Source of the DNA: a virus
Reading direction: 5' to 3' (one strand)
Virus record (IMG/VR): IMGVR_UViG_3300025759_000076
Location: 1 to 64,000 of that record
Length of the DNA stretch: 64,000 nucleotides
Shown here piece by piece: positions 902 through 34,759 of the stretch. The translations under genes were made by a program, and so were the position numbers. Below the pieces are notes generated by a model. The model searched no databases. It worked only from the letters and a program-made list of their open reading frames with translations, and was not told where the DNA came from. Each line of letters opens with the position of its first letter. Positions within the stretch are counted from its first letter, which is position 1.

Positions 902-3402
902 CAGGCAAAAAATGAATCAAGGTTTACAGTTTTCTCAACATGCCATCCAATCGCATCAAGAATAGTCTTGAGTGGCTCTAAGAAGGCTTTGCTGAATTGT
1001 AGGTCATAGTCAATGTATTTGTCAAGACCAATCTCACTAGGGAAATCTGAAATGAACGAGATTACATTCTCTCTAATAATATTTGGTGTCTTGAGATAGA
1101 TAAATTTAATCTTTTCACCATTGTTGATATAAGAATACTTGTTGGTCAATCCACACTCTTTAATGTAATGATTATATAGAAGTGCTCCACGAACATGAAT
1201 GGGAGAACCCTTACCGTAGATAGTTGAATGACTCTTATGTTTCTTTACATCAGATACTGAACGAGGGAATGCAATGTCTTCTGGTCGCATCTTATTAAAC
1301 TTTTTTCGAGAGTCTTCGATAAAGTTAATTACTTCATCTTCAGTCCCATTCATCATCAACTTAAGAGCATCCTTAATCATCTTCCTACATGGTGCAGGTG
1401 TTGATGACTTGACTGCCTCAATACCCATAATCTTCAGTTTAGGTTCTGAGTATCTTACACCTTCACTATCCCACACGTTGAGAATGTATCTCTTCTTTGC
1501 TGTCCATATTCCACGGTCTGCAATGTTCTCCCGTTTCATCTGCATCTTCTGGTCATATGCATTTACATACGTCGCAAGTTCCTGGTAAGACTCCTCAATA
1601 AAAGGTTCCAACTTCTCTTCGCAGATCTTATTAAGTATGGACACAACCTCAACCTTATTATCAGACTTACTAGAAAGAAATTTATCAACAATAGGTCCAA
1701 AGTTAATATAGATTGAGTCAGTGTCAGATGCAATGACATAATCCGTGTCTTGAGTTTGTAATAGGTTATTTAGATACCCGTTTACCTTGTTCTCAATCCA
1801 CCGAATAGATGTTTGTCCTGAAAGCGTGATAGCTTCTGCATTAGCAAGTTTGAAGAAACGGAAGTATTGATTACCAATTGCACCATAGCAAGAGTTCAAT
1901 GCAATCTTACGAGCCATCTGGAAGTTATTGAATTTGGCAATATCCTTCTCTAATTGTTTGGTAGGTTTCTTCTCATACTCCTGTTGGGCTTGGAGCATTT
2001 TCTTCTTATAAATCTTACGTTCTGCATACATCTTCTCCATCAACTCAGGCATGAACCCTCTGATGTCCTTACGGAACATTGCACCGTTTGCACACACTGC
2101 GTAGTCCTTATACATCTCAAAGGTAATCTCTTTATTCAAGATCCTATCAATGGTTGCAGAGGGATGTTTCTCCTCCACCAGGGTCTCTGGTGAGATGTTG
2201 TACTGCATCATCAGGTGAGGGTACAGGGAGTTCAAGTCAAACGACACCACCCAGTCATAGACACCAGGAATAGGTTGTTTTACATATGCACCTTCGTACC
2301 TCTTCTCCTTCTCACTTCTATCTCTAGGAGGTACAACAATATCTCTCTTCTTGAGATAATTATAGATGATGGTATCCCACATACGAACTTGGAACATCAC
2401 ATCAACATAGTTCACCTTGGCATCATATGCCATGGTCAATGCCAACTCAATCAGTTTCATCTTGTCTTCCATACGGTCAACAAGTTCCACGTCAACGATG
2501 TTATAGTCTACAAACTTCTTCCAGTTACCACGATAGAAGTCTTTGAAGGTATCAAACTCAGAGTGGTCAAGTTTCTTCTGACCAAGTTCTACCTCTGCAA
2601 TGTAGTCAAGTCTATAAGATTCCTGAGCCTTATAAGTAAACTTCTTATAAAGTTCAAGGTAATCTAGAGTAGTGACTCCAGCAATATCAAATGTATTGAA
2701 CTCTCTACCGTTGATAAAGACAGATTCTTGACTCACAATACCCCAAGGAGACAAAAGTTTTAACTTCTTGAGTCCCATTATACGATCGATTCTTCCACAC
2801 AAGTATGGAATATCATACAGTTTTACATTCCATCCAGTCACAATCTCTGGTGGGTTTCGATTCCACCAGGCAATGAATGAGTTGAGCATGTCAATCTCAT
2901 TTTCATAGTGGTAATAAGTTACGTTACTTTGGGATGGAGTATATCTATGTCTACCCCAGGTTGTAATCTGTTTGGTTGTGTAGTCCTGAACAGAGATAGT
3001 CAACATCTCTTCAGAACAAGAGTCTGGATCAGGGAATCCATTCTCTGCCTGAACCTCAATATCAATCGTAATCAGATTGATCTTTGTAATGTCAAATTTA
3101 ATCTCATCTTCGGGATACTTTTCTGAGATATATTGAAATGCATATCTATCATTACCATAAATCTTGAAGTTATCTACACCATCATACTTCTTGTAGAACT
3201 CTCTACAGTCACGAATAGAACCTGGAATAATAGGTTCTAAATTTTCTCCCTCCAGTGTTTTATACTTTGACTCTCGGTTGGAGTTAACAAAGAGAGTTGG
3301 TTGGAACTCATCTTTGAACATAACCCTCTTACCATTTTCATAACCACGGACGAGAACATTGTCTCCAACCAATTGAATGTTCGTATAAAACTTTAACGAC
3401 AT
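901..3402 (-). CDS. 43: DNA polymerase, family B (gp43)
   Basis: Replicative polymerase with 3'-5' proofreading exonuclease. It has 833 aa, slightly shorter than T4 gp43 (about 898). The Exo I motif DIE is at residues 114-116. Polymerase motif A reads DLNSLYP, motif B contains KIALNSCYGAIGNQYFRF, and motif C reads ASDTDSIY, so both active sites look intact. The gene ends in a TGATG overlap with uvsX. Upstream are two small LSm-like genes and hsp20, so the T4 neighbour regA is displaced. It works with the clamp gp45 and the clamp loader gp44/62 encoded at 5.8-10.4 kb. Confidence 0.98.
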   Translation of the reverse strand: MSLKFYTNIQLVGDNVLVRGYENGKRVMFKDEFQPTLFVNSNRESKYKTLEGENLEPIIPGSIRDCREFYKKYDGVDNFKIYGNDRYAFQYISEKYPEDEIKFDITKINLITIDIEVQAENGFPDPDSCSEEMLTISVQDYTTKQITTWGRHRYTPSQSNVTYYHYENEIDMLNSFIAWWNRNPPEIVTGWNVKLYDIPYLCGRIDRIMGLKKLKLLSPWGIVSQESVFINGREFNTFDIAGVTTLDYLELYKKFTYKAQESYRLDYIAEVELGQKKLDHSEFDTFKDFYRGNWKKFVDYNIVDVELVDRMEDKMKLIELALTMAYDAKVNYVDVMFQVRMWDTIIYNYLKKRDIVVPPRDRSEKEKRYEGAYVKQPIPGVYDWVVSFDLNSLYPHLMMQYNISPETLVEEKHPSATIDRILNKEITFEMYKDYAVCANGAMFRKDIRGFMPELMEKMYAERKIYKKKMLQAQQEYEKKPTKQLEKDIAKFNNFQMARKIALNSCYGAIGNQYFRFFKLANAEAITLSGQTSIRWIENKVNGYLNNLLQTQDTDYVIASDTDSIYINFGPIVDKFLSSKSDNKVEVVSILNKICEEKLEPFIEESYQELATYVNAYDQKMQMKRENIADRGIWTAKKRYILNVWDSEGVRYSEPKLKIMGIEAVKSSTPAPCRKMIKDALKLMMNGTEDEVINFIEDSRKKFNKMRPEDIAFPRSVSDVKKHKSHSTIYGKGSPIHVRGALLYNHYIKECGLTNKYSYINNGEKIKFIYLKTPNIIRENVISFISDFPSEIGLDKYIDYDLQFSKAFLEPLKTILDAIGWHVEKTVNLDSFFA

Positions 3403-3454
3403 AAATAAAATAACAGATTAAATAATATGGGATACATCTACCTGATTGAAAATC

Positions 3455-3727
3455 CTAGCAACCCTTCACCAGGCTCTCGTATTTGTCTCTCAGTTTACTA
3501 TTGGGTTCCGTAATCGTCAAGATTTTGTCCGAGTGAATCATAAAGACGTTTTCAGTTGTGACGTTGATTAACCAAGGTTGTAATGTCATGGTCAAGTCAT
3601 CACTTAAAATAAATGGTTCCGTCATTTTACAGTCAGGTTCACCAATTTCACAGGTTACTTCTTCAATCTGTGCTAATAGAACCTGTTGATTCATCAGAAC
3701 TAACACTTTGAGATTCTCTAGTTTCAT
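3455..3727 (-). CDS. Small LSm-like protein, paralogue 1
   Basis: A 90-aa protein of unknown function. Its N-terminal strand pattern (KVLVLMNQQVLLAQIEEV), a central PWL and the C-terminal LTITEPNSKLRDKY match, in the same order, three other small proteins in this window (3663-4022, 6198-6485 and 18399-18782). The family resembles short beta-barrel Sm-like folds, but that is inference. It starts at ATG 3727 after a GGAG and overlaps the end of the upstream paralogue by about 65 nt. It lies directly upstream of DNA polymerase gene 43. This copy lacks the SGED motif of the others (NQQV instead). Confidence 0.75.
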   Translation of the reverse strand: MKLENLKVLVLMNQQVLLAQIEEVTCEIGEPDCKMTEPFILSDDLTMTLQPWLINVTTENVFMIHSDKILTITEPNSKLRDKYESLVKGC

Positions 3728-4022
3728 ACTGGTCTACTCCATCTTGGTACATTGTTTTTAGTTGATTCACTGGTTCAGTAATTGTAACTACCCAGTCAGA
3801 AACCACAGGAATTACTTTGTCGGAACTTAGTGGCATCCATGGTTGAAGTTGAATTTTAGATGGAACTTTAGTATTACCTTCTGTCTGACTCATATCAGCA
3901 ACAAGTTTTACCCTACAAGGATACTTAAGATAGTAACCAACTACCTTTTCCTCAAGAACCATTTCCTGAATGTCTGCGACTACATCTTCCCCAGACTTCA
4001 GAAGTAAAAGTTTTACGGTCAT
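3663..4022 (-). CDS. Small LSm-like protein, paralogue 2
   Basis: A 119-aa protein of unknown function with the family pattern VKLLLLKSGEDVVADIQE at the N-terminus, LQPWMPLSSDKV in the middle, and VVTITEPVNQLKTMY. The C-terminal tail is extra and rich in Ser and acidic residues. It overlaps the next paralogue and is probably cotranscribed with it and gene 43. AGGAAA lies about 11 nt before the ATG. A strong terminator separates the group from hsp20 upstream, so a promoter should lie in the AT-rich stretch at about 4023-4055. An RNA- or nucleic-acid-binding role is only suggested by the fold guess. Confidence 0.8.
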   Translation of the reverse strand: MTVKLLLLKSGEDVVADIQEMVLEEKVVGYYLKYPCRVKLVADMSQTEGNTKVPSKIQLQPWMPLSSDKVIPVVSDWVVTITEPVNQLKTMYQDGVDQYETRESQSVSSDESTGSISTD

Positions 4023-4054
4023 TTTTTTACAATTTTCCTAAATTAATTATACCA

Positions 4055-4098
4055 ATAAAAAAGAGGGGTGTCAACTGCTAGTGGACAGTTACCCCTCT
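4055..4098 (-). terminator. Rho-independent terminator after hsp20
   Basis: On the minus strand AGAGGGGT (4098-4091) pairs with ACCCCTCT (4069-4062), and an inner AACTG/CAGTT pairing extends the stem. A run of T follows. It lies about 36 nt past the hsp20 stop codon. Confidence 0.85.
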
Positions 4099-4133
4099 GC
4101 GACGACGATATTTACAAGGTAGCCCTCTATTAT

Positions 4134-4562
4134 TTAGAGATACTCTTTACGCTGATGATGTTCTGGTACAACCTTTGTAAGGGTCACTGATAAAAGTCCG
4201 TCTTCAAATACGACGTTGGAGACTTCGGTGTCTTCAGCGAGGGTCCAGGATCGCTCAAAGTTTCTTCGAGCCAAACCCTTGTGGATAAACGTCCCTGTCT
4301 CGTCAGATGGTTCCTTTTCCCCCCTGATAAAAAGTTTTCCATACTCGGTGTAAGCATTTACTTCTTCCCTTTTAAATCCTGCTAGTGCAATTTCTAGACG
4401 TGTTTCAGTACTATTTACCTGAACTACGTTATATGGAGGATAGTTTTGAGTAGATGCGTTGAAAATTCTAGTAATGTAATCATCCATACCAATAGAATTT
4501 CTGGTAATCTGATGCATTAACTGATCCAAATCCGCAGCATTATACTTCGTTAGATTGGTCAT
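4134..4562 (-). CDS. hsp20: Small heat-shock protein, Hsp20/alpha-crystallin
   Basis: A 142-aa ATP-independent chaperone that would hold unfolding host or phage proteins. The alpha-crystallin domain is recognisable from NVVQVNSTETRLEIALAGF, through EYGKLFIRGEK and RNFERSWTLAED, to FEDGLLSVTLTKVVPE. I chose ATG 4562 over longer in-frame starts because AAGGAG lies 7 nt upstream and a TATAAATA late promoter lies at 4619-4626, inside the longer reading frame. A terminator on each side makes it a stand-alone late transcription unit set into the early replication block. Hsp20 genes are a hallmark of T4-like cyanophages and related marine myoviruses. Confidence 0.95.
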   Translation of the reverse strand: MTNLTKYNAADLDQLMHQITRNSIGMDDYITRIFNASTQNYPPYNVVQVNSTETRLEIALAGFKREEVNAYTEYGKLFIRGEKEPSDETGTFIHKGLARRNFERSWTLAEDTEVSNVVFEDGLLSVTLTKVVPEHHQRKEYL

Positions 4563-4618
4563 TTTGAGCTCCTTGTTAAAGCGAGTTTGTGTTGTGTGGA
4601 CCCTTACGGCATCCGATA

Positions 4619-4626
4619 TATTTATA
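4619..4626 (-). promoter_or_regulatory. T4-type late promoter of hsp20 (TATAAATA)
   Basis: A perfect match to the T4 late -10 octamer recognised by gp55. It lies about 57 nt before the hsp20 ATG and just downstream of the regA terminator. Confidence 0.8.
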
Positions 4627-4633
4627 ACGAAAC

Positions 4634-4666
4634 AAAAAAAGTAGATACGGTATATACCGTATCTAC
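4634..4666 (-). terminator. Terminator after regA
   Basis: A perfect 26-bp palindrome at 4641-4666 (GTAGATACGGTA paired with TACCGTATCTAC around a central TA) is followed on the minus strand by seven T. It lies between the regA stop and the hsp20 promoter and insulates the two units. Confidence 0.85.
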
Positions 4667-4720
4667 CTATAAGGGTTTCCGACTTTTGTAGAGACCGCAC
4701 GAAAGGAGTCTCACACTTAT

Positions 4721-5158
4721 TTATTCAGACTCTTCAGTCTTACCTCTTTTACCAATGTTATATTTTTGTTCTAGAATCCATTCTTGTTTGTCCTTATAAG
4801 ACAGAACTTTAATCTGATTCAGTGGTGCAATATCAAGAATTGAATCTTCTTTGACTATCGTAATGAGTCCCCAATCAGCAAGAAGCTTAGTAATACGATT
4901 CCTACGCTGAACATCGTTAATAGTAAGATTAGCGTGCTTTCCGTCTAATGCAAAAAGTTCTTTAAAACTTACAAGATAATATCTACCTTGCTTATGAAGA
5001 ATATGGCAAGATTGATATAATTTTTTCTCCTTTCTTGATGCGACTCCGATACGAGTTAAAGTTTCACGAACCTTTAAAAAATCATCAGGTTCATTCAACA
5101 AAACTTCAATCATCATATCTGGAGACCATTTCACAATTGGTTCATTTACACCTGACAT
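4721..5158 (-). CDS. regA: RegA translational repressor
   Basis: An RNA-binding repressor that in T4 blocks ribosome binding on early mRNAs, including those for replication proteins. The core LLNEPDDFLKVRETLTRIGV, then LYQSCHILHKQGRYYLVSFKE and KQEWILEQKYNIGKRG, matches T4 RegA closely along its length. At 145 aa it is longer than T4 RegA (122) because of short extensions at both ends. The start is ATG 5158: the sequence before it reads TGAGGAAAATT, a good ribosome site, whereas the only earlier in-frame start is TTG. The start overlaps the end of the inserted HNH gene by 17 nt. Confidence 0.95.
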   Translation of the reverse strand: MSGVNEPIVKWSPDMMIEVLLNEPDDFLKVRETLTRIGVASRKEKKLYQSCHILHKQGRYYLVSFKELFALDGKHANLTINDVQRRNRITKLLADWGLITIVKEDSILDIAPLNQIKVLSYKDKQEWILEQKYNIGKRGKTEESE

Positions 5159-5759
5159 AATTTTCCTCAAAATTATTTACATATCTTTTATTTAGGTTTT
5201 TAGACCATTCAAGCATTTGGAGATTATCTATAGAAGAACAAACTTCTTCAGATATATTATTATCATAACAAAATCTTACTGATAATTTATGATCTATTTG
5301 ATAACCACCTTCAACTCCACATAATGTTCTTGGATAATTATTTGGATTAATTATGTTTTGATATTTAACATAAGTTTTTTCAGTCAATCTTCTTACTTTA
5401 TTACAATATTTTTTATAGTGTGTAGTATTGTTTTGTCTACCTAAATTATAATAATTCAAAAGTCTACAAACATTACTCACAGAACATTTTAATAAATTTG
5501 CGATTTGTTTATTTGTTTTTTTAGAATTAATTAGATTAAGCAATTCTTCTTTTGTAACGGAATCAATTACTTTCCTATTATTTCCACCGCCTTGTGGTCT
5601 TTTTTGTATTTCTAGAGCATCAAACCATTTTCTAACTCTAGTTTTGGTGGTTTGATAAACTTCGGCAATTTCTTGTAGTGTATGAGTTTCATATAACTCT
5701 ACTAGGTCTTGTTTTAATGGAAGTTTCCCATATTTTATTTTTTGCCGATTTAGTTTCAT
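5142..5759 (-). CDS. HNH-type homing endonuclease between 62 and regA
   Basis: A free-standing endonuclease gene of 205 aa. Two helix-turn-helix segments (about residues 15-50, LQEIAEVYQTTKTRVRKWFD, and 70-105, KQIANLLKCSVSNVCRLLN) precede a C-terminal HNH-like region with YQIDHKLSVRFCYDNN and IDNLQMLEWSKNLNK, which gives the H, N and K positions. In T4-like phages such genes cut cognate alleles lacking the insertion and spread by repair. It separates 62 from regA, adjacent genes in T4, and its 3' end runs 17 nt into regA. It has its own late promoter (5781-5788). The codons look more AT-rich than those of its neighbours. Confidence 0.85.
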   Translation of the reverse strand: MKLNRQKIKYGKLPLKQDLVELYETHTLQEIAEVYQTTKTRVRKWFDALEIQKRPQGGGNNRKVIDSVTKEELLNLINSKKTNKQIANLLKCSVSNVCRLLNYYNLGRQNNTTHYKKYCNKVRRLTEKTYVKYQNIINPNNYPRTLCGVEGGYQIDHKLSVRFCYDNNISEEVCSSIDNLQMLEWSKNLNKRYVNNFEENYVRCK

Positions 5760-5807: not shown

Positions 5808-6194
5808 TCATTTTTTTCCACCAGTGTCAAGTCGTTGTTTGATAAATTCAATTTGTTCATTAGATAGTATTTTCAGTACCTGAGATGCTTTCTCATTACT
5901 ATAACCATAGTATTGTTTAACAAACTCTAAATCTGATACCTTTTCCTTTCTAAGCCAAGGAGAGAATCTCTTCCTCTTTCTCAATATATTTAGATAAAAA
6001 TTATATTGCATATCTTTATCTAGGAAATGATACTTATTCATTTCATTAGCAAACAAGACACAATCCAAGTGACCTGACAAACATTTGTTAATAATAAAGG
6101 GGGGATATTCTTTAACAAGAGTTGAATCTTCTTCGATAAGATTCTCTTTGGTAAAGTTGATTGAGTTCAACCAATCCTTCAATTCAGTAGTCAT
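5808..6194 (-). CDS. 62: Clamp loader small subunit (gp62)
   Basis: The partner of gp44 in the ATP-driven loader that places the gp45 clamp on primed DNA. It has 128 aa, shorter than T4 gp62 (187). Recognised from the central FYLNILRKRKRFSPWLRK, the following YYGYSNEKASQVLKILSNEQ, and its position in the 45-44-62-regA series. Sequence similarity to T4 gp62 is weak, so context carries much of the call. The ATG at 6194 lies 3 nt after the stop of the LSm-like gene upstream. The homing endonuclease follows directly. Confidence 0.85.
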   Translation of the reverse strand: MTTELKDWLNSINFTKENLIEEDSTLVKEYPPFIINKCLSGHLDCVLFANEMNKYHFLDKDMQYNFYLNILRKRKRFSPWLRKEKVSDLEFVKQYYGYSNEKASQVLKILSNEQIEFIKQRLDTGGKK

Positions 6195-7111: not shown

Positions 7112-7633
7112 ATGAATTACTCAAGTATCTATCAGTCTATCGTAGATAAGTATGGTTGTCAATCAACTGGTCTTGTTGAGCGACATCATATATTGCCCAG
7201 AAGCATGGGAGGTACTGATAGTAGTGACAATATAGTTGGAGTGTCGCCACGGGTCCATTACATTTTACATCTGTTATTGTATAAAATGACCGAAGGTAAT
7301 GATAAAAGGAAGATGTGGTATGCTGTCTGGAATATGTCCCATCAGGGCAAAACCAAATCTGGTTCTATGTATCAGTTCATAAGAGAACAGGCATCAGAAA
7401 GACAAAGAGAGATGCGAGGTAACAGAGTTCCCTGGAATAAAGGTAAAAAACACTCATCCGAAACTATTGAGAAACTCAGAAATACCCGGAAGGGGAAAAT
7501 GTATGGAAAGTTTTGGAGAGTTGAGTATAAAGGAACAATATACAATTCAATCAAAGAATGTATAAATCTAACCGGAGACAGTTACTATTTAATAACTACC
7601 TATGGTAAGAAGTTAGAAAAATACAGACCCTAA
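7112..7633 (+). CDS. HNH homing endonuclease with NUMOD3 repeat, opposite strand
   Basis: A 173-aa endonuclease of the free-standing homing type. The HNH core is at residues 22-55: LVERHHILPRSMGG, then the conserved Asn in SSDNIVGVSPRVHYILH. A NUMOD3-type DNA-binding repeat follows at about 105-130 (VPWNKGKKHSSETIEKLRN) and a possible NUMOD1-like IYNSIKECINLTG at the end. It is the only clearly functional gene on the plus strand. Its stop overlaps the stop of gene 44 tail-to-tail. It is placed exactly between gene 44 and the next gene, as expected of a mobile insertion that spares its host. Confidence 0.9.
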   Translation: MNYSSIYQSIVDKYGCQSTGLVERHHILPRSMGGTDSSDNIVGVSPRVHYILHLLLYKMTEGNDKRKMWYAVWNMSHQGKTKSGSMYQFIREQASERQREMRGNRVPWNKGKKHSSETIEKLRNTRKGKMYGKFWRVEYKGTIYNSIKECINLTGDSYYLITTYGKKLEKYRP

Positions 7634-26214: not shown

Positions 26215-27891
26215 TTAGATTACACCACCGGCTGGGTTTTTTGGAGCCGCTGGATCTTTGGGTACTTCTGGTGATTGAATTGCATCACCACCACCCATAT
26301 CAGGTGGAATTGCACCACCCATTCCTGGTGCACCACCCATTTCAGGATCCATTGCAATTGCATTAGGATCGGGAATGATACCATTCTCAATCTCTTTTTC
26401 AATCAACGTATCCTGCTCAATAATCTCATCATCAGTCTGACGGAAGATATTTCTTCTTACATACTCAGAAGAGTAATACTTACCAATATATGGTTCCATC
26501 AGTGTTGCCAGGTTGATTCTCTCTGTCATCAACTCTGCATTTTTAAGTTCTGCAAAGTGATTGTCATACAGGAAGTCATATTGAATATGGTCTGCCATGT
26601 ACTCCCAATCTTCAGGAGTCACAATGTTCTTCAATATAAGTTGAGTTCTCAACATGTCGTTAAACATATCAGAGAATCTCTTCCTCATTCTTCCAACAAA
26701 CTTGGAGAACTTAACTTCGTCCCTCAAGATTTCTGAAGAACGACCCAGTGACATACCAGAACCTTCACCTTCAATTCTGGTCTCAGGAACATTCAATGCT
26801 CTATAAAGCTTTCTCTGGAAGTAGTTGATGTCAGTAATTTCACCAAGGTTCTGACCACCAGGAAGTGTAGTAATTTCAGTACCACGACCACCTTCTCTAC
26901 GAGGCAGCCAGAAGTCTTCCATCATAGACATGAACTTCTTATCATCACGAAGTTCACCAGTGTTTGCATCATAGACTAACTTGTTTCTATAACGCATCAT
27001 GACATCACGCAGATACTGTTCTGCTTTCTGCTTGGGAAGATTGCCAACGTCAATGTAGAAGATTCTGCGTTCGGGTGCTCTTGATAGACGATAGATAACC
27101 AGTGAGTCCTCAATCATCATCAACTGATTGAGTGGTTTGATTGCCTTATGCATCCAGGACAATGTAAGTCCTTTGTTTCTATCTACCAGACCAGAGGTGC
27201 AATAGGTAACAGAATCACGAGTCATCTTGACTCCCTTCTGTGGATTACCACCGTACCCATTACCAGTACGAGCATCTGGAGTATAGATGAAGAACTCTTC
27301 TATCTCTGGAAAATCGTATGCAGTTTCGTTAGAATTTGTAAATGCGGTTTGTGCGGTCTGAACACTATCAGGACCTTTCTTCTTCAACTTACGAACATAA
27401 CGCATTTTGGCTGAGTCAATATACCTCAGTTCTTGAATACCCTCTTGTGGTTTCTTTTGGTCAATGACTTTATTGTAGTAAAGTCTTCCGTCAATATACC
27501 AATTCCTAAAGATTTCGTGTGCCTTCTTATCAAAGTCAAGAAGTTCGAGAATATATCTAAACTCTTCTCTTACCTTTTTCTTGATATTATCACTTGCACT
27601 TAGATTGGACAGTTCGATTGATACTGGAGTATCATTTGTATCTGAAACAATTGCTTCATTTACAATGTCTTCAATTGCACTATCACATTCTGGATAGAGT
27701 GCCATCTGACGATATCGTCTGATTAGATCAGTCTCATTTTTATATACCCCTTCAATATCTACGTAGCTACCAAAAAAACCACTACTGACATAGTTCTCCG
27801 ATCCATCCTGATTATTGGGTGGAATCGGAGATACTACGCCAGGCGGTGTTTTTTCGGTATCTTCAATTGAGTAACCAAATAGTCTCGCCAT
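26215..27891 (-). CDS. 20: Portal vertex protein gp20
   Basis: The dodecameric portal through which DNA is packaged. It has 558 aa (T4: 524). Typical portal features: SAIEDIVNEAIVSDTNDTPV, WYIDGRLYYNKVID, MSWMHK-type region SWMHKAIKPLNQLMMIEDSL, YRLSRAPERRIFYIDVGNLP and PETRIEGEGSGMSLGRSSEI. The C-terminal tail is rich in Gly, Pro and Met. A GATAAATA late-like octamer lies at 27925-27932. Confidence 0.97.
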   Translation of the reverse strand: MARLFGYSIEDTEKTPPGVVSPIPPNNQDGSENYVSSGFFGSYVDIEGVYKNETDLIRRYRQMALYPECDSAIEDIVNEAIVSDTNDTPVSIELSNLSASDNIKKKVREEFRYILELLDFDKKAHEIFRNWYIDGRLYYNKVIDQKKPQEGIQELRYIDSAKMRYVRKLKKKGPDSVQTAQTAFTNSNETAYDFPEIEEFFIYTPDARTGNGYGGNPQKGVKMTRDSVTYCTSGLVDRNKGLTLSWMHKAIKPLNQLMMIEDSLVIYRLSRAPERRIFYIDVGNLPKQKAEQYLRDVMMRYRNKLVYDANTGELRDDKKFMSMMEDFWLPRREGGRGTEITTLPGGQNLGEITDINYFQRKLYRALNVPETRIEGEGSGMSLGRSSEILRDEVKFSKFVGRMRKRFSDMFNDMLRTQLILKNIVTPEDWEYMADHIQYDFLYDNHFAELKNAELMTERINLATLMEPYIGKYYSSEYVRRNIFRQTDDEIIEQDTLIEKEIENGIIPDPNAIAMDPEMGGAPGMGGAIPPDMGGGDAIQSPEVPKDPAAPKNPAGGVI

Positions 27892-28595: not shown

Positions 28596-31016
28596 TCAAA
28601 CAGTACCAATTACTTCTTCGAAGTCAACACCAGTTCTAGTAGCAACGAACGTCAAGGTGACGAAGTTGATAGACTTGGTTGGCTTCAGGAAGATATCAGC
28701 TCTAAACTCATTGTTGTCAATGACATCTGGAGTGTTATTGGATTCGTCACAAATAACTCTGAAATCGTAAACACCTCTCTTAGCTTGAACATCTCTCAAA
28801 TAGGGTTCGACAATGTTAACAAAGTTTGCTCTAGTGTTAGAGTCATTGAGTTCGAACAACTGGTCATTCGCAGCTCCCTCAAGAGCTTGTTCTACAGTCA
28901 AGAACAATCTTCTTACATTAATTCTATCGAAGGCCGAAGAATAAGCAAGAGCAGTCTTGTCACCGTAAAGTGCAATACCAGAACCTCTTTGGTTAATGAT
29001 TGAGTTAACTCTAGCACCATAGAGTTCGTCTCTTTGATTCTTGGATGGGTTGTATGCCATCTTAACTGCATTGTTCAGAACACCTCTCTGGAGACCAGCA
29101 GGTGAGAACCAAGGATACGCATTAAGTGCAGTTCTTACCATCAAACCAGCAATATCACCATTAGTTGGGATATAACGGAATGCGTTATTGAATCTATCGT
29201 AAGTGTACTTATAACCTGTATCAAACACCGCATAAGACGATGATTGAAGAGGTGAATAGAAACCTAATACGTTTGCTGTTTGTGTAGTAGAATTGGTTAC
29301 ATTTACAACGTTAGCTCTATGTGGAGAGATAGTCGCAATACAATCCTTTCTCTGTTCTGCAATAGAAATCAGAAGATTTGCTTTTGCTTGCGATTCATTT
29401 TCTACCGCAAGTCCAGGACCCATGATTAGATAATCAACAGCAATCTCATCTTTGTTAGCAAATAGATTGTAACCTTGTAACAGACCAGCAAGGTCAGCAG
29501 TCATACCCTTATTGGCACTATAGTCAACACCACCAGTCAGTGTATAACTTACATTTCCCAGTGAGGAGAAACTAATACCTTGTGCTTCTTGACCCCAAAG
29601 GCCTTCGGCATTTGTATAAGGTGTGAAGGAAGTCGAGAAACCAGATGCTGTTGGAATCGTATTCCAATAAGTATCTTGTGCATTCGATGGGTTAAACCCA
29701 GCAAAAGCAAACTTCGAATTGTTTGCAATGAAGTCCTTGTAGTAAGTCCTAGTAGGATTGTCTCCATCAGCAGTAGCATCAGAAGCCTTAGACAACGATA
29801 CAAACCTTTCAACAATATTACCCTGAACTCCGGTAACATCTCCACTGTCGTCTACAACCACTACGTGAATTGCATCGTTTGCACCAGATCTTTCAGTTGC
29901 AAATCTGTTGGATACTGGTCTTGGTGCTACATTTCTCCAGTAAACTATAGAATTTGTAAGACCAAGAGTTTGTTGATCGTACCAGTCAGATACTGTAGAA
30001 GTACTAGAAGTGGTTGGGGTTCCACCAGTTCCTGGAGTGATAGTGAGTATATCACCATCAGAGAATGAATTTGCTGGATTATAATTCTGATAAGTAATCG
30101 GAGTTTCAGTTCCTGCAATCGATGTCAGTGTTTGATAGGTAACAGCTGTACCAACCAATGCAGATTGAGCAATACCTACGGACAATGTGACTGTAGAAGA
30201 ACCAAAACTTACAACATCAATACCACTATTATTCTGTGTAACACAAATCGTTCCTGTAGTAATACCAGATGTACTATCGACAGAAAGTATTGTTGTACCT
30301 GCTGTTCCAATACTACTTATTGTAGTAAAACCAATGTTTGTGGTAGATTCTGTAGTCGGGTTAACCCTTGCAAGTACCTTAACTTCAATCGAACTATTTC
30401 CGTTTACTGCATCCGTGGTAACTCCAGTGATAATACCCTTCAGGTTGCCATTGAACTGAATTAGTGAACCATTACCTGGGATAGTAGTTCCAACCTTTGG
30501 TGTAGAAACACCATAACCAACAACAAATCCTGATGCACCTGGATTAGTAGTAGCGACACTAATAATCTGATCTGATAGATTGTCAATCACACAAACTTTC
30601 AGACTGTTCGACCATGTACCGGGATTTCTTGCTGCCCAGTAGAAACTGGAGTCTGTCTGATGATTCTGTTCGTAATCATCTAGATTATCAATTCTAACAG
30701 CTTCCGAAGCTTGTTGAGTTCCGGCATTACCATTATTAAGGGTGTCTCCACCGACTCTAACAACTTTTAAAATACCACCGTAGGAGAGGAATGAATTTCC
30801 AGACATCCAGTACTCGTACTGTCTATCAGTTCCAATTGGCTTACCAAAAGTATCAAGGAATTGTTGCTGTGTCTCAATCGTAATTGGTTCATTTACTGGT
30901 CCCAATGAAAAGGGTCCTGCAATTGCACCAATGTTGTCAAGAACGTTCTCAGCTCTTCCAACAGTTAAGTCAACTTCCCTGACTAAAACTCCTGGAGATA
31001 GTTGAGGAGTAGCCAT
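28596..31016 (-). CDS. 18: Tail sheath protein gp18
   Basis: The contractile sheath subunit. It has 806 aa (T4: 659). Begins MATPQLSPGVLVREVDLTVG. The C-terminal conserved part includes PWFSPAGLQRG, VNSIINQRGSGIALYGDKTA and FDRINVRRLFLTVEQALE. The extra length is a variable Ser/Thr/Gly/Ile-rich insertion at about residues 160-340 that would protrude from the sheath surface. A CATAAATA late promoter precedes it. Confidence 0.97.
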   Translation of the reverse strand: MATPQLSPGVLVREVDLTVGRAENVLDNIGAIAGPFSLGPVNEPITIETQQQFLDTFGKPIGTDRQYEYWMSGNSFLSYGGILKVVRVGGDTLNNGNAGTQQASEAVRIDNLDDYEQNHQTDSSFYWAARNPGTWSNSLKVCVIDNLSDQIISVATTNPGASGFVVGYGVSTPKVGTTIPGNGSLIQFNGNLKGIITGVTTDAVNGNSSIEVKVLARVNPTTESTTNIGFTTISSIGTAGTTILSVDSTSGITTGTICVTQNNSGIDVVSFGSSTVTLSVGIAQSALVGTAVTYQTLTSIAGTETPITYQNYNPANSFSDGDILTITPGTGGTPTTSSTSTVSDWYDQQTLGLTNSIVYWRNVAPRPVSNRFATERSGANDAIHVVVVDDSGDVTGVQGNIVERFVSLSKASDATADGDNPTRTYYKDFIANNSKFAFAGFNPSNAQDTYWNTIPTASGFSTSFTPYTNAEGLWGQEAQGISFSSLGNVSYTLTGGVDYSANKGMTADLAGLLQGYNLFANKDEIAVDYLIMGPGLAVENESQAKANLLISIAEQRKDCIATISPHRANVVNVTNSTTQTANVLGFYSPLQSSSYAVFDTGYKYTYDRFNNAFRYIPTNGDIAGLMVRTALNAYPWFSPAGLQRGVLNNAVKMAYNPSKNQRDELYGARVNSIINQRGSGIALYGDKTALAYSSAFDRINVRRLFLTVEQALEGAANDQLFELNDSNTRANFVNIVEPYLRDVQAKRGVYDFRVICDESNNTPDVIDNNEFRADIFLKPTKSINFVTLTFVATRTGVDFEEVIGTV

Positions 31017-31052
31017 GTTTTCTCTCTCCTTTTTTACTCATTTAACTAAAAA

Positions 31053-31060
31053 TATTTATG
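31053..31060 (-). promoter_or_regulatory. Late promoter CATAAATA of genes 18-19
   Basis: One mismatch to TATAAATA, about 37 nt before the gene 18 ATG, in the only gap between 17 and 18. Confidence 0.6.
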
Positions 31061-31098
31061 AATATCCCGGTTTTGATAGGGTAAACAGGAAGTAAACC

Positions 31099-31329
31099 CT
31101 ACCAATCAGGGTATTCCCACCTTGATTTCGGAGTTCTATCTTTCTTCTTCTCCTTTACATACTCAATAAAACACTCTTTACAGACATATGAATAGGAAGA
31201 AGGAACTGCTCCTCTATCCTTTCTTGTCCTATAAAAATCGTCTACAAGATTTTTGAACTCACCACAACTTTTACATCTCCTGTCATTTAAAAGTAAATGA
31301 CCCAGTTCTAGTTGCTCATCAAAGTCCAT
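31099..31329 (-). CDS. Zinc-ribbon-like small protein after terL
   Basis: 76 aa starting MDFDEQLELGHLLLNDRRCK. Two Cys pairs, CKSCGEF and VCKECF, about 33 residues apart, would bind one zinc. A basic segment (VKEKKKDRTPKSRW) follows. The start is fixed by overlap with the terL stop (TAATG); the earlier TTG lies inside terL. Similar Cys-pair proteins include endonuclease-VII-like fragments and nucleic-acid-binding proteins, but no function can be assigned. Confidence 0.75.
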   Translation of the reverse strand: MDFDEQLELGHLLLNDRRCKSCGEFKNLVDDFYRTRKDRGAVPSSYSYVCKECFIEYVKEKKKDRTPKSRWEYPDW

Positions 31330-32513
31330 TAGTAGTTCCAGAGTTCCCAACCACCTGCAGCAGTTCCATACTCATCATACTCATTACTCTTGGTATACCA
31401 CCTATCTCCTTCATTATCTACAAAGGTTCCTTCATCTAAACCATCATTCATAAAACCAAACGGTGCCATGTCTTGTTCGATTTGGTTCTTCTGTTCTTCA
31501 TACAGTCTCTTACGAACATCTTGGTCAGTTAGTTCTTTAAAGTAATCCTGTGCAACTAACCATGCATAAATGACTAGACACATTGCAAGGTCATCATTAC
31601 AACCTTCTTCTGCCTCAAATGAATTACTCTTTGAGATAAATGTAGTCAGTTCTGAAATAATCTCATAGTCATTGAAGATAAGTTTATCTTCTTCAATCAT
31701 TGTCTTAAGATTAAGTGACCCAATCTTTTTGACAGTCTTGGACATCTTGACACCAAGTTGGGTTTTAGTTCCAGAGAAACCCTGTCCTACAACTTGTCCT
31801 GCCCTACCCCTCATTGCACACATCAGAACATTCTGATATTCCAAGTCATATTGAAGAATACTTGCAACCTGGTCTCCAATATCATTGACCTCACAAAGAA
31901 CAAATGCATTGTTATATTTCTTTGCTAACTGAAAAATGATGTTAGGGAACAACATCGGTTTGATTTCATTGTTCCTATACTTCGCCACAACTCTATGTGG
32001 GAATGTAGTAATATCAGTAATAATAAATGCAGAGTAGTCATTACCTACTCCTCTTGCAACGTCAACAGTTACAATATAATCGTGGTCAGGAATTGGTGCA
32101 ACATGAACATCTAGTCCTGCACTTGTTTGAATTGGATTATCATACACCAGAGTTTTGAGTTTACTTGGTGCAATCAATGTATCAACAGACCCAAGGAATT
32201 CACAATTATGTGAAACTATTTTATTGGTAATGTATAGGTTTTCTTCCCCTACGTCCAATAAATCATATAAGTATATTCCTTCCTCAACTATTTCATTATA
32301 TACAACTTTTTTTCCTTGAATAATATCATCAAGTTTTAGAGAAGATGCCTTTATCTTTTCACTCCCAAATGAATGATTATCAGAACATTTTATCTCACTT
32401 CCATCATCAAAAATAATCCAATGATAAAATGGTTTGAAAACTTTCTGTATTCCACTAAATGATTGAAATCCAGTTGGTGTCTTTACTTTTATATTGTTGT
32501 TTATTTTATACAT
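31329..32513 (-). CDS. 17: Terminase large subunit gp17, C-terminal half fused to C-intein
   Basis: 394 aa. Residues 1-103 are the C-terminal part of an intein ending VSHN; residue 104 (Cys) starts the C-extein CEFLGSVDTLIAPSKL. The extein continues with the RNase-H-like nuclease domain, IVTVDVARGVGNDYSAF, with the first catalytic Asp at about 151, LCEVNDIGDQ, and DDLAMCLVIYAW. After splicing with the upstream half it would give a 555-aa packaging motor (T4 gp17: 610). The ATG at 32513 is preceded by GAGGGCAA. It is in the same frame as the upstream half, separated only by TGA-GGG-CAA. Confidence 0.93.
   Translation of the reverse strand: MYKINNNIKVKTPTGFQSFSGIQKVFKPFYHWIIFDDGSEIKCSDNHSFGSEKIKASSLKLDDIIQGKKVVYNEIVEEGIYLYDLLDVGEENLYITNKIVSHNCEFLGSVDTLIAPSKLKTLVYDNPIQTSAGLDVHVAPIPDHDYIVTVDVARGVGNDYSAFIITDITTFPHRVVAKYRNNEIKPMLFPNIIFQLAKKYNNAFVLCEVNDIGDQVASILQYDLEYQNVLMCAMRGRAGQVVGQGFSGTKTQLGVKMSKTVKKIGSLNLKTMIEEDKLIFNDYEIISELTTFISKSNSFEAEEGCNDDLAMCLVIYAWLVAQDYFKELTDQDVRKRLYEEQKNQIEQDMAPFGFMNDGLDEGTFVDNEGDRWYTKSNEYDEYGTAAGGWELWNY
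32205..32513 (-). other. C-intein of a split TerL intein (103 aa)
   Basis: Intein block features: IFDDGSEIKCSDNHSFG (an F-x-D-G/H-x-F region), then NLYITNKIVSHN, the C-terminal block with the penultimate His and terminal Asn needed for branch resolution, followed by Cys+1 of the extein. No homing-endonuclease domain. Length and sequence style match the long C-fragment of atypically split inteins such as AceL-TerL. Confidence 0.9.
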
Positions 32514-32519
32514 TTGCCC

Positions 32520-33398
32520 TCACATTGTATTGTATAAATCCTCTATCCTCATCTTACTGATAACATCATCTTTCTCAACTTCTACCAATGTATCACCTCC
32601 AACGCACTCAAACTCAATCTTGAACTGTTGTTCAGAAGTGTTCTTGATTGTCTGTTCTTTCCAGACTTCATCCCTACCAGGAACTTCTGACCAGTGAACA
32701 TCAGTTGGAATATATTCGTTCTTTGCCCTCTCTGCATCATGCCACATTCGATAGAAGTGGTTCATCCCGTGAGGGGTAGAAACAATAATTACCTTCGTTG
32801 ATTTACCAGAAGTAATCGTAGGATAAACAGATGCAAAGAATGCATCAGCAACATGATTTGGGACGAATGCAAATTCGTCCAAGAAGAGGATGTTAAAAGA
32901 CATACCTCGAACAGCTGATGCTGAGGTAGAAGCTGCAAGTATCTTACTACCGTTCTCTAATTCAATATTACCTTTGTTCCATACAAGAATACCCTGTTGC
33001 ATCCACTTGGGTAAGTTCTCATATGCAGTAGCCAGTCTTGCTAATAGTTCTCTTGCCGTTGTGGCTTTGTTTGCCAGGATACCAATGTTGACACTATCAT
33101 TAAAGATAGCATAATGAAGTAGATACGACACACAGGTGGTTGACTTACCAGTCTGTCTAGGCATCTTACAGATATTAAATCTGTTCTCGTGGAAATTATT
33201 GATTAACTTTTCTTGGAAATCATAAGTCTTGAATGGCTGAAGACCATGGTCCAAGGTCACAATCTTTACATAATTATTTGCAAAGTATACCGGATCCTGT
33301 TTACATTTGATATACTCTTCAATATTCTCTTGTGTAAACTCAATCGCGGTATTCGCCTTTTTCAGCAGCGGATTTCCTAAATAAACATCATTACTCAT
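32520..33398 (-). CDS. 17: Terminase large subunit gp17, N-terminal half fused to N-intein
   Basis: 292 aa. Residues 1-264 are the ATPase domain of the DNA-packaging motor: Walker A MPRQTGKS (79-86), Walker B ILFLDEFAF (170-178) with catalytic Glu, and VIIVSTPHGMNHFYRMW as the coupling motif. Residues 265-292 are a short N-intein. The N-extein ends EQQFKIEFE. On its own this half lacks the nuclease. The gene ends with TGA at 32520-32522, seven bases before the ATG of the second half. Confidence 0.93.
   Translation of the reverse strand: MSNDVYLGNPLLKKANTAIEFTQENIEEYIKCKQDPVYFANNYVKIVTLDHGLQPFKTYDFQEKLINNFHENRFNICKMPRQTGKSTTCVSYLLHYAIFNDSVNIGILANKATTARELLARLATAYENLPKWMQQGILVWNKGNIELENGSKILAASTSASAVRGMSFNILFLDEFAFVPNHVADAFFASVYPTITSGKSTKVIIVSTPHGMNHFYRMWHDAERAKNEYIPTDVHWSEVPGRDEVWKEQTIKNTSEQQFKIEFECVGGDTLVEVEKDDVISKMRIEDLYNTM
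32523..32606 (-). other. N-intein of a split TerL intein (28 aa)
   Basis: Starts with the nucleophilic Cys1 (CVGGDTLVEVEKDD), the intein block A pattern C-x-x-G-D-T-x-V, and ends MRIEDLYNTM. Only 28 residues long, far shorter than the roughly 100-residue N-fragments of DnaE-type split inteins. Confidence 0.9.
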
Positions 33399-33403
33399 AA
33401 AAA

Positions 33404-34759
33404 TTACCTAGTTTCTCTCCACTGAAATGCATTGTAAATATCTGTATCAGTATTATCAGACAAATTTGTTACAATAATAGCAAAGATGTTACTATCATCG
33501 GCATCAATGTTTTGTGCAATATAAGATCTTTTAGCCGAGGTTGGATCAAACGCAACTGTGGATGATGCTTGTTTTCCTGATGGATTATTTGCAGCAAGTA
33601 ATGATGCGTTTTTCAAGTCTCCACCAGTTGTTGTAAAATTAGTTCCTGCTGTAACATTATATTCAACTGCAGAATCATCGTTAGTACTTTCCCAAGTTCC
33701 ACCTGTAATATTATCGTTACTTGGTAATCTCCAAATCTCAAGTCTACAACTTGTGGAAGCACTCAATACTTCAATATCAGTCAATCTAACTGTTGTTCTA
33801 TTTGGAATTCCTTTGAATGTATTAGATAGTCTAATAGCACCTACACATTGTCTAAATGTGCTTTGTGTATTTCTTGATAAGGTAATTGGTCCATTAAACG
33901 CTGCAAATTCAACACCTGTTTCTTTATATCCACCTTCACTCAATACAGTGGAACAGATTTGTTCCATTGATGTAATACCAACAGCAGCTCCTGTATTAGC
34001 AATCTCACATCTAATTGGAAGTGATGGAAGTGACCAATATGCATGTTCTTCAATATTTGAATGATTGAATTCGTGGAAGTATATAGTTCTCCCACCCAGA
34101 ACAAATCCACATCTTATCCTACCCACACCCAACCACTGAAAGTCTGTTGCAAACAACTGTGTTTTAGTGAAGTCCAAAGATATACTGGTAATACCAGTAC
34201 CATCCATAGGATCTAAATTCCAATTAACCTGATTAACAACTGTATCACTGGCAATTCCAGTATTAAAAGATCTTTTTACAACAGAAACAGTTCCGTCTCC
34301 TTCTTGTTGAACAAATATACCATTTCTATCATCATAATATCCCACTTTCTTTGTTGTATTTTCTCTTACATCAAGAAAATTAAAACTTGTCATTATAGAT
34401 TGAGACTTACCTGGCATGTAATGGTGATACATTCTAGATTGGTGAATAACCTGATCCGTTGCACCAGTTCCAACAATTAATGCAATAGATGCTGTATTTG
34501 GATTTACTTCGGTTGTAGCACCAGCACCAACAGTTTTCGTAAGAAGTTCTACTTCTTCACCATAAATGTGTGTATAGTCGGCAAGAGTATATGGCATCGA
34601 TACTCTTGATCTTCCAAAAGCATCAACTGATCCACCACTTGTGCCAGTAGTTACTCCACAATCACCAATGTTGCCGTATCTGTCGGCACACATGTAAACT
34701 TCGTGAAGTGTTCTCTCCTGGTTTAGATAATCTTGTGTATTCTTATTCCACTGTGCCAT
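33404..34759 (-). CDS. Virion structural protein, unknown role
   Basis: 451 aa with a beta-rich composition and no enzymatic motif. It begins MAQWNKNTQDYLNQERTLHE and contains DAFGRSRVSMPYTLADYTH and YHHYMPGKSQSIMTSFNF; the C-terminal half is Ser/Thr/Asn-rich. Proteins of this type occur in marine T4-like virions, but the location in the particle is not known to me. Its ATG overlaps the preceding gene by 17 nt. It lies immediately upstream of terL. Confidence 0.7.
   Translation of the reverse strand: MAQWNKNTQDYLNQERTLHEVYMCADRYGNIGDCGVTTGTSGGSVDAFGRSRVSMPYTLADYTHIYGEEVELLTKTVGAGATTEVNPNTASIALIVGTGATDQVIHQSRMYHHYMPGKSQSIMTSFNFLDVRENTTKKVGYYDDRNGIFVQQEGDGTVSVVKRSFNTGIASDTVVNQVNWNLDPMDGTGITSISLDFTKTQLFATDFQWLGVGRIRCGFVLGGRTIYFHEFNHSNIEEHAYWSLPSLPIRCEIANTGAAVGITSMEQICSTVLSEGGYKETGVEFAAFNGPITLSRNTQSTFRQCVGAIRLSNTFKGIPNRTTVRLTDIEVLSASTSCRLEIWRLPSNDNITGGTWESTNDDSAVEYNVTAGTNFTTTGGDLKNASLLAANNPSGKQASSTVAFDPTSAKRSYIAQNIDADDSNIFAIIVTNLSDNTDTDIYNAFQWRETR

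What the first reader, a model, noticed from the sequence alone, without database searches (positions are those of the whole stretch)
32205..32606. Atypically split intein in the terminase large subunit
The two adjacent genes encode the ATPase and nuclease halves of gp17. The first ends with a 28-residue segment starting C-V-G-G-D-T, and the second begins with 103 residues ending V-S-H-N before Cys+1. Joining the exteins gives a continuous TerL across FKIEFE/CEFLGSV. A very short N-intein and long C-intein in TerL is the architecture of the AceL-TerL class, known mainly from metagenomes. A genomic copy in a T4-like phage would tie the class to its virus. Active trans-splicing is inferred from intact Cys1, penultimate His, terminal Asn and Cys+1.
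Basis: partly seen in the sequence, partly recalled or inferred. Interest (0 to 1): 0.9.

Follow-up and report, generated by a model that had tools for sequence, protein, structure and literature searches.

The report
Split intein that lost its nuclease
A marine cyanobacterium-infecting phage makes its DNA-packaging motor from two separate genes whose products are very probably stitched together by a short/long split intein, and comparison with 84 relatives shows that this copy recently lost the selfish DNA-cutting gene that normally sits in the gap, so the gap now survives only as one leftover stop codon.

Summary
On the minus strand, TerL-N ends in a 28-residue N-intein (32606-32523). After TGA GGG CAA, TerL-C opens with a 103-residue C-intein (32513-32205). 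Spliced TerL would be 555 aa, the length of intein-free Synechococcus phage S-B05 TerL (91.7% identical). The halves match the two chains of PDB 6dsl, the Cat consensus of the AceL/GOS-TerL class, so it is a new member of that class.

The window equals its ~99% identical sister L002 minus one 587-nt block. Four other relatives also lack the nuclease gene, by different junctions; one (L011) is re-fused. In nuclease-bearing loci the N-intein's stop lies in a leader resembling the C-extein start, followed by a T4-type late promoter, as in I-TevI autoregulation. The window's stop is a relic of that leader. IntC is under purifying selection (dN/dS 0.086) and moves between phages (dS 0.035 against 0.83-0.96 in exteins).

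"Known mainly from metagenomes" needs qualifying: this record is itself metagenomic, and cultured Vibrio and Campylobacter phages carry related split TerL inteins. Splicing is inferred, not shown.

The parts
32607..33398 (-). TerL (gp17) N-extein, 264 aa, ATPase domain, ending FKIEFE
   Evidence: Pfam Terminase_6N E 6e-21; aligned to S-B05 TerL
32523..32606 (-). N-intein (IntN), 28 aa, Cys1 ... EDLYNTM
   Evidence: Matches PDB 6dsl_A CatN, E 0.0033; Cys1 in all 83 split IntN
32520..32522 (-). TGA stop of TerL-N, in frame with IntC; relic of the nuclease gene's leader TGTGAG...
   Evidence: Leader alignment of nuclease-bearing relatives
32518..32520 (.). Junction where relatives carry a 587-nt block (leader, late promoter and most of the 189-aa GIY-YIG gene)
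   Evidence: Window-type L005 equals L002 minus one block: 88-nt identical prefix, 36-nt identical suffix, 1-nt overlap
32514..32519 (-). GGGCAA, matching the last bases of the lost nuclease gene (TGTTGGGCAAATG); with the stop forms GAGGG, a Shine-Dalgarno-like site for IntC
   Evidence: the ribosome-binding role is inference
32205..32513 (-). C-intein (IntC), 103 aa, ATG start, ends VSHN
   Evidence: PDB 6dsl_B CatC E 8e-51; dN/dS 0.086
31329..32204 (-). TerL C-extein, 291 aa plus stop, nuclease domain, begins CEFLGSV (Cys+1)
   Evidence: Pfam Terminase_6C E 1e-13; aligned to S-B05 TerL

Best explanation
This is a naturally split class-1-type intein of the AceL-TerL/Cat class in the large terminase of a T4-like cyanophage. 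TerL-N with the 28-aa IntN and TerL-C with the 103-aa IntC are translated from adjacent, probably coupled cistrons. The fragments associate, Cys1 and Cys+1 carry out the acyl shift and transesterification, and the terminal Asn cyclises with help from the penultimate His. The product is a continuous 555-aa TerL. The split site is where a GIY-YIG homing-endonuclease gene with its own leader and late promoter had inserted; that gene mobilised the intein between cyanophages. In the window's lineage a single 587-nt deletion removed it. What remains is a split intein that cannot home by itself, kept split only by the relic stop codon and restarted from a GAGGG-ATG juxtaposed by the deletion. Shown by sequence: intein identity, site, the 587-nt difference, purifying selection, horizontal movement. 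Inferred: splicing, translational coupling, nuclease activity and target.
For: Both halves match both chains of 6dsl, and Foldseek of the predicted model ranks 6dsl first, then other inteins including VidaL 6vgv (model confidence modest, pLDDT 65). C1, SHN and C+1 are conserved wherever the sequence is complete. IntC dN/dS is 0.086 over 1,503 pairs. The exteins join to the exact S-B05 length. 79 of 84 distinct loci carry the 189-aa nuclease gene, intact in 78, with a GIY-YIG match over Pfam's cut-off. The window-type junction equals sister L002 minus one block. L067 and L098 keep 3' remnants of the nuclease gene. Absence is polyphyletic on the TerL tree. IntC dS is 0.035 against extein dS 0.83-0.96 for L003 and L008, and identity falls off at the intein borders.
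Against: No protein or RNA evidence of splicing. The contig is incomplete, so a nuclease gene elsewhere in the genome cannot be excluded (none like it on the 74.6 kb). The polarity loss-rather-than-gain rests on the remnants and the tree; for the window itself the remnants are only 6 nt on each side. The Pfam and NCBIfam intein models score below their curated cut-offs, as such short divergent phage inteins may do.
Confidence: 0.9

Rival explanations
1. Readthrough of the in-frame TGA makes a single chain, and the working form is a cis-spliced 134-residue intein; the split is only apparent.
For: TGA GGG CAA keeps the frame. Relative L011 is a genuine single ORF with a 126-aa cis intein.
Against: L056, L067 and L098 have out-of-frame halves (gaps 98, 134, 106), 10 loci use TAA, and a GAGGG-ATG restart is present. 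Nuclease-bearing sisters with identical inteins cannot read through.
Confidence: 0.06
2. The two TerL halves work as separate subunits, as in the split NrdA of phage Aeh1, and the intein no longer splices.
For: Non-spliced split phage enzymes exist (PMC2988022). The ATPase and nuclease domains fall on different halves.
Against: Catalytic residues are intact and IntC is under strong purifying selection. The close relatives Cat and AceL-TerL are reported to splice in trans (PMC11766414).
Confidence: 0.03
3. The intein was split before any nuclease gene, and the nuclease gene was gained by the sister lineages; the window is ancestral, not deleted.
For: Presence/absence alone is symmetric. L011 and intein-free phages sit near the window clade.
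Against: The window junction holds TGTGAG from the leader and GGGCAA from the nuclease tail. L067 holds about 40 nt of the nuclease 3' end. Nuclease-free types are scattered and each has its own junction.
Confidence: 0.06
4. Assembly or sequencing artefact, or a self-splicing group I intron rather than an intein.
For: Single metagenomic contig.
Against: Two further contigs have the same junction, L007 at 99.99% over 7.8 kb. No Rfam match in 31000-34000.
Confidence: 0.01

Closest known systems
AceL-TerL / GOS-TerL / consensus Cat atypically split inteins (PDB 6dsl)
   Same: TerL host protein, IntN of 25-37 aa, IntC about 104 aa, split after the first helix (S2 position, PMC13014065), Cys chemistry; both chains of 6dsl match by sequence
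   Different: Sequence is new. In this lineage the gene between the halves is gone. Whether the original AceL and GOS loci carried a nuclease gene could not be read here.
'Fractured genes' of Dassa et al. 2009 (split intein with a free-standing endonuclease gene between the halves; paper not held, known here from memory and citations)
   Same: Relatives of the window have exactly this layout, with a GIY-YIG gene
   Different: The window lacks the endonuclease gene: a decayed fractured gene
Vibrio phage VP-1 and 1.244.A TerL inteins
   Same: Same insertion site in TerL, GIY-YIG-like nuclease at the same point of the intein, IntC in a separate reading frame
   Different: The nuclease is fused in frame to IntN; about 39% (VP-1) and 35% (1.244.A) identity in IntC
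Campylobacter phage CP81 (Fletchervirus) TerL
   Same: 31-aa IntN with stop plus separate long IntC in TerL
   Different: Inserted at the Walker B motif (IDE/CAF), and the two half-genes lie about 22 kb apart on opposite strands
I-TevI autoregulation in phage T4 (PMC2988022)
   Same: In relatives of the window, a target-like sequence sits at a T4-type late promoter upstream of a GIY-YIG gene
   Different: Binding and repression are untested here, and the element is absent from the window except for TGTGAG

Membership tests
AceL-TerL/GOS-TerL/Cat atypically split inteins | Sequence homology of both fragments to characterised members | tested here: met
   IntC to 6dsl_B E 8e-51; IntN to 6dsl_A E 0.0033
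AceL-TerL/GOS-TerL/Cat atypically split inteins | Short IntN (25-37 aa) and long IntC (about 104 aa) on separate genes | tested here: met
   28 and 103 aa; reference lengths from PMC11766414
AceL-TerL/GOS-TerL/Cat atypically split inteins | Catalytic residues Cys1 (or Ser1), penultimate His, terminal Asn, Cys+1 | tested here: met
   Present in the window; C1 in 83 of 83 split IntN, SHN in all 80 complete IntC ends
AceL-TerL/GOS-TerL/Cat atypically split inteins | Exactly the same insertion site in TerL as native AceL-TerL and GOS-TerL | not tested
AceL-TerL/GOS-TerL/Cat atypically split inteins | Protein trans-splicing activity | not testable with these tools
   Needs co-expression; purifying selection is indirect support
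Class 1 intein / HINT fold | Curated intein domain models | tested here: inconclusive
   PF14890 20.2 bits against cut-off 35.8; TIGR01445 14.2 against 24.5
Class 1 intein / HINT fold | HINT fold | tested here: inconclusive
   Foldseek ranks inteins first, 6dsl E 2.7e-9, but pLDDT 65 and TM 0.40
Fractured gene (split intein with endonuclease gene between halves) | Free-standing endonuclease gene between the halves | tested here: not met
   Only TGA GGG CAA between the halves in the window; met in 79 of 84 distinct relatives
GIY-YIG homing endonuclease (in relatives) | GIY-YIG domain match over the curated cut-off | tested here: met
   L002 insert, PF01541 23.0 bits against 22.6; no such gene found on the 74.6-kb record
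I-TevI-type operator at a late promoter (in relatives) | Target-like site at TATAAATA upstream of the nuclease gene | tested here: met
   TATAAATA in 77 of 79 leaders; leader reads C[EK]F[LFI]G in 78 of 79
I-TevI-type operator at a late promoter (in relatives) | Nuclease binds it and represses transcription without cutting | not testable with these tools
   Needs gel shift, cleavage and reporter assays

The most novel reading that the evidence does not exclude
The atypical split position of TerL inteins is a scar of nuclease-gene insertion at a non-canonical place in the intein, tolerated because the nuclease is made as a separate protein. The element brings a target-mimicking operator that both ends IntN and controls the nuclease. 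After the nuclease is lost the intein can stay split by the relic stop (window) or re-fuse into a cis mini-intein (L011): a complete and reversible homing cycle of a split intein seen in one group of phages.
Probability: 0.5. Interest if true: 0.75.

Novelty: new member of a known kind. Interest (0 to 1): 0.55.

Why it matters
Atypically split TerL inteins are protein-labelling tools whose natural setting is poorly described in the literature readable here. The IMG/VR series supplies dozens of natural pairs at about 75-100% identity, ties the class to T4-like cyanophages, and puts empty, nuclease-bearing, nuclease-broken, nuclease-deleted and re-fused forms of one element side by side. That makes the origin and reversal of intein splitting testable. 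It also offers a natural cis/trans comparison: L011 has a single TerL ORF with an intein close to the window's split one.

Tried and rejected
Group I intron or other RNA element: no Rfam match. Chance ORF: excluded by homology. Assembly error: excluded by two independent contigs. Nuclease gene elsewhere on the contig: only weak matches to an HNH/NUMOD3 protein at 7415-7510 and to a second short stretch at 72448-72564. Relatives in bacterial and archaeal genomes: none with the Cat-like query. Single-sequence fold: useless (pLDDT 31). First fold alignment A1: IntN rows misplaced, dropped. Second fused contig like L011: none by an exact-type pattern, so L011 is a single observation. The small zinc-finger-like ORF 31350-31099 was considered as a homing gene and dropped: S-B05 also has a small ORF right after TerL and no nuclease domain is matched. 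Primary papers on GOS-TerL, fractured genes, intein splitting and VidaL were not held.

Full report
WHAT IS THERE. On the minus strand, TerL-N (33398-32520) ends in a 28-residue segment CVGGDTLVEVEKDDVISKMRIEDLYNTM. TerL-C (32513-31329) begins with 103 residues ending VSHN and continues as CEFLGSV. The two ORFs are in the same reading frame, separated only by TGA GGG CAA. Removing 32606-32205 leaves a 555-aa TerL that aligns at 91.7% with the 555-aa TerL of Synechococcus phage S-B05, through the junction. The N half is the ATPase domain and the C half the nuclease domain.

WHAT IT IS. IntC matches chain B of PDB 6dsl ('Consensus engineered intein CatC') at E 8e-51 and IntN matches chain A ('CatN') of the same entry at E 0.0033. 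Cat was designed from AceL-TerL and GOS-TerL and splices in trans (PMC11766414); a 2026 paper places the AceL/GOS split after the first helix, position S2 (PMC13014065). A predicted model of the joined halves has modest confidence (pLDDT 65), but Foldseek ranks 6dsl first and other inteins, VidaL among them, next. Pfam and NCBIfam intein models match below their cut-offs.

THE RELATIVES. IMG/VR scans returned more than 100 relatives. After removing identical copies, 84 loci show both halves. In 79 of them the space between IntN and IntC is about 590 nt longer than in the window and holds a 189-aa ORF, intact in 78 and stopped at codon 95 in L076, with a GIY-YIG domain over Pfam's cut-off and a weak NUMOD3 motif. 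Its stop codon overlaps the ATG of IntC and its last codons supply an AAGGAG-like ribosome site in many loci. So the usual layout is a 'fractured gene': a split intein with an endonuclease gene inside. I know that term from Dassa et al. 2009, which is not held here.

THE WINDOW LOST THE NUCLEASE GENE. Window-type L005 and its nuclease-bearing sister L002 share an identical 88-nt prefix and an identical 36-nt suffix with 1 nt overlap: the window allele is L002 minus one 587-nt block. L002 is about 99% identical to the window in flanking DNA. The bases left are TGTGAG from the leader and GGGCAA from the nuclease tail. L007 (99.99% over 7.8 kb) and L005 (99.4% over 8.4 kb) come from other metagenomes and share the junction. 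Four other nuclease-free types have different junctions: L056 (98 nt), L067 (134 nt, with about 40 nt of the nuclease gene's 3' end), L098 (106 nt, with a trace of the tail and a 37-aa IntN) and L011 (69 nt). The TerL tree needs at least three changes for the split nuclease-free forms in it (L067 was too short to include). L011 is a single open frame of 681 codons in which ...EDLY runs straight into KVNNNIKV...: a contiguous intein. It was seen in one contig only.

A TARGET-LIKE LEADER IN THE RELATIVES. In nuclease-bearing loci the stop of IntN lies inside a leader, TGTGAGTTTYTTGGATTATAAATA, before the nuclease ATG. Its first 15 nt read C[EK]F[LFI]G in 78 of 79 loci, like the C-extein start CEFLG, and match each locus's own C-extein start at mostly 11-13 of 15 positions, against usually 8-10 for the best place elsewhere in the same insert. 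Of the six leader positions that vary, five are positions that also vary in the C-extein start (my count; hypergeometric chance about 0.01). TATAAATA, the T4-type late-promoter element (from general knowledge), follows in 77 of 79. In phage T4 the intron endonuclease I-TevI binds a target-like operator at its own late promoter and represses itself without efficient cutting (PMC2988022). The parallel is close, but binding is untested; a relic of how the gene moved in is the alternative. These loci share ancestry, so they count as few events. In the window only TGTGAG survives, and it supplies the stop codon that keeps the intein split.

SELECTION AND MOVEMENT. IntC has a median dN/dS of 0.086, like the neighbouring N-extein (0.082). 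Against L003, L008 and L010, IntC synonymous divergence is 0.035-0.053 while extein synonymous divergence is 0.83-0.96; nucleotide identity falls from 99% in IntC to roughly 73-94% within the flanking exteins. The intein has moved between phages. The intein-free alleles are those of cultured cyanophages: 483 phage records match TerL, the listed ones at about 75-80% coverage as expected without the 402-nt insert, S-B05 and P-TIM68 were checked directly, and no cyanophage appears among the listed IntC matches.

THE VIRUS. The window is part of a 74.6-kb IMG/VR record. Its nearest cultured relatives are phages of Synechococcus MW02, S-B05 being placed in Kyanoviridae. A 188-kb record with the nuclease-bearing form (L034) carries a photosystem reaction-centre gene, a cyanophage hallmark. 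The kind is not confined to metagenomes: Vibrio phages VP-1 and 1.244.A have a nuclease fused to IntN at the same TerL site, and Campylobacter CP81 has a 31-aa IntN and a separate IntC at Walker B, on genes about 22 kb apart.

WHY THE SPLIT IS WHERE IT IS (inference). Nested endonuclease domains in ordinary inteins sit at one conserved site, and a large insertion at other positions is argued to clash with the host protein (PMC6801210). Here the nuclease is a separate protein, so an insertion near residue 30 costs only a split. On this view the atypical split point is simply the insertion point. The stages seen - empty, full, broken, deleted, re-fused - follow the homing cycle described for inteins (PMC3229294).

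VERDICT. Observation confirmed; class assignment supported; the 'ties the class to its virus' claim is partly right but not new in the sense meant. The window is a nuclease-deleted member of a known class. The evolutionary series and the leader are the more interesting results; both rest on sequence only.

Noticed in passing
L082 (Vibrio phage VP-1, MH363700.1), TerL-N ORF 1837-4053: VP-1 TerL appears to hold a second, contiguous mini-intein at the Walker A motif (RQSGK/CVDHDT...DGILSHN/TTVV) besides the split one; the annotation misses both.
   Followed up: no
L088 (Campylobacter phage CP81, NC_042112.1) 27159-27875 (+) and 3877-5205 (-): TerL halves with a 31-aa IntN and a separate IntC are encoded about 22 kb apart on opposite strands; about 40 Campylobacter phage records match the IntC.
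   Followed up: partly
L083 (Escherichia phage kaaroe) 2251-5362: RB49-like coliphage TerL is split at the Walker B motif, with a nuclease-like region fused to IntN and a separate IntC; 14 Escherichia phage records match the IntC.
   Followed up: partly
L076, insert between IntN and IntC: Nuclease gene interrupted by a stop at codon 95: a decaying copy.
   Followed up: partly
L009, around 3639-5311: C side 100% identical to the window, N side about 78-90%: recombinant, co-conversion tract or assembly chimera.
   Followed up: no
window 7112-7633 (+): Possible free-standing HNH/NUMOD3 homing-endonuclease gene, on the strand opposite to its neighbours.
   Followed up: no
window 5142-5759 (-): Helix-turn-helix protein with an HNH-like stretch next to the clamp-loader subunit gene (5808-6194); possible second homing gene.
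   Followed up: no
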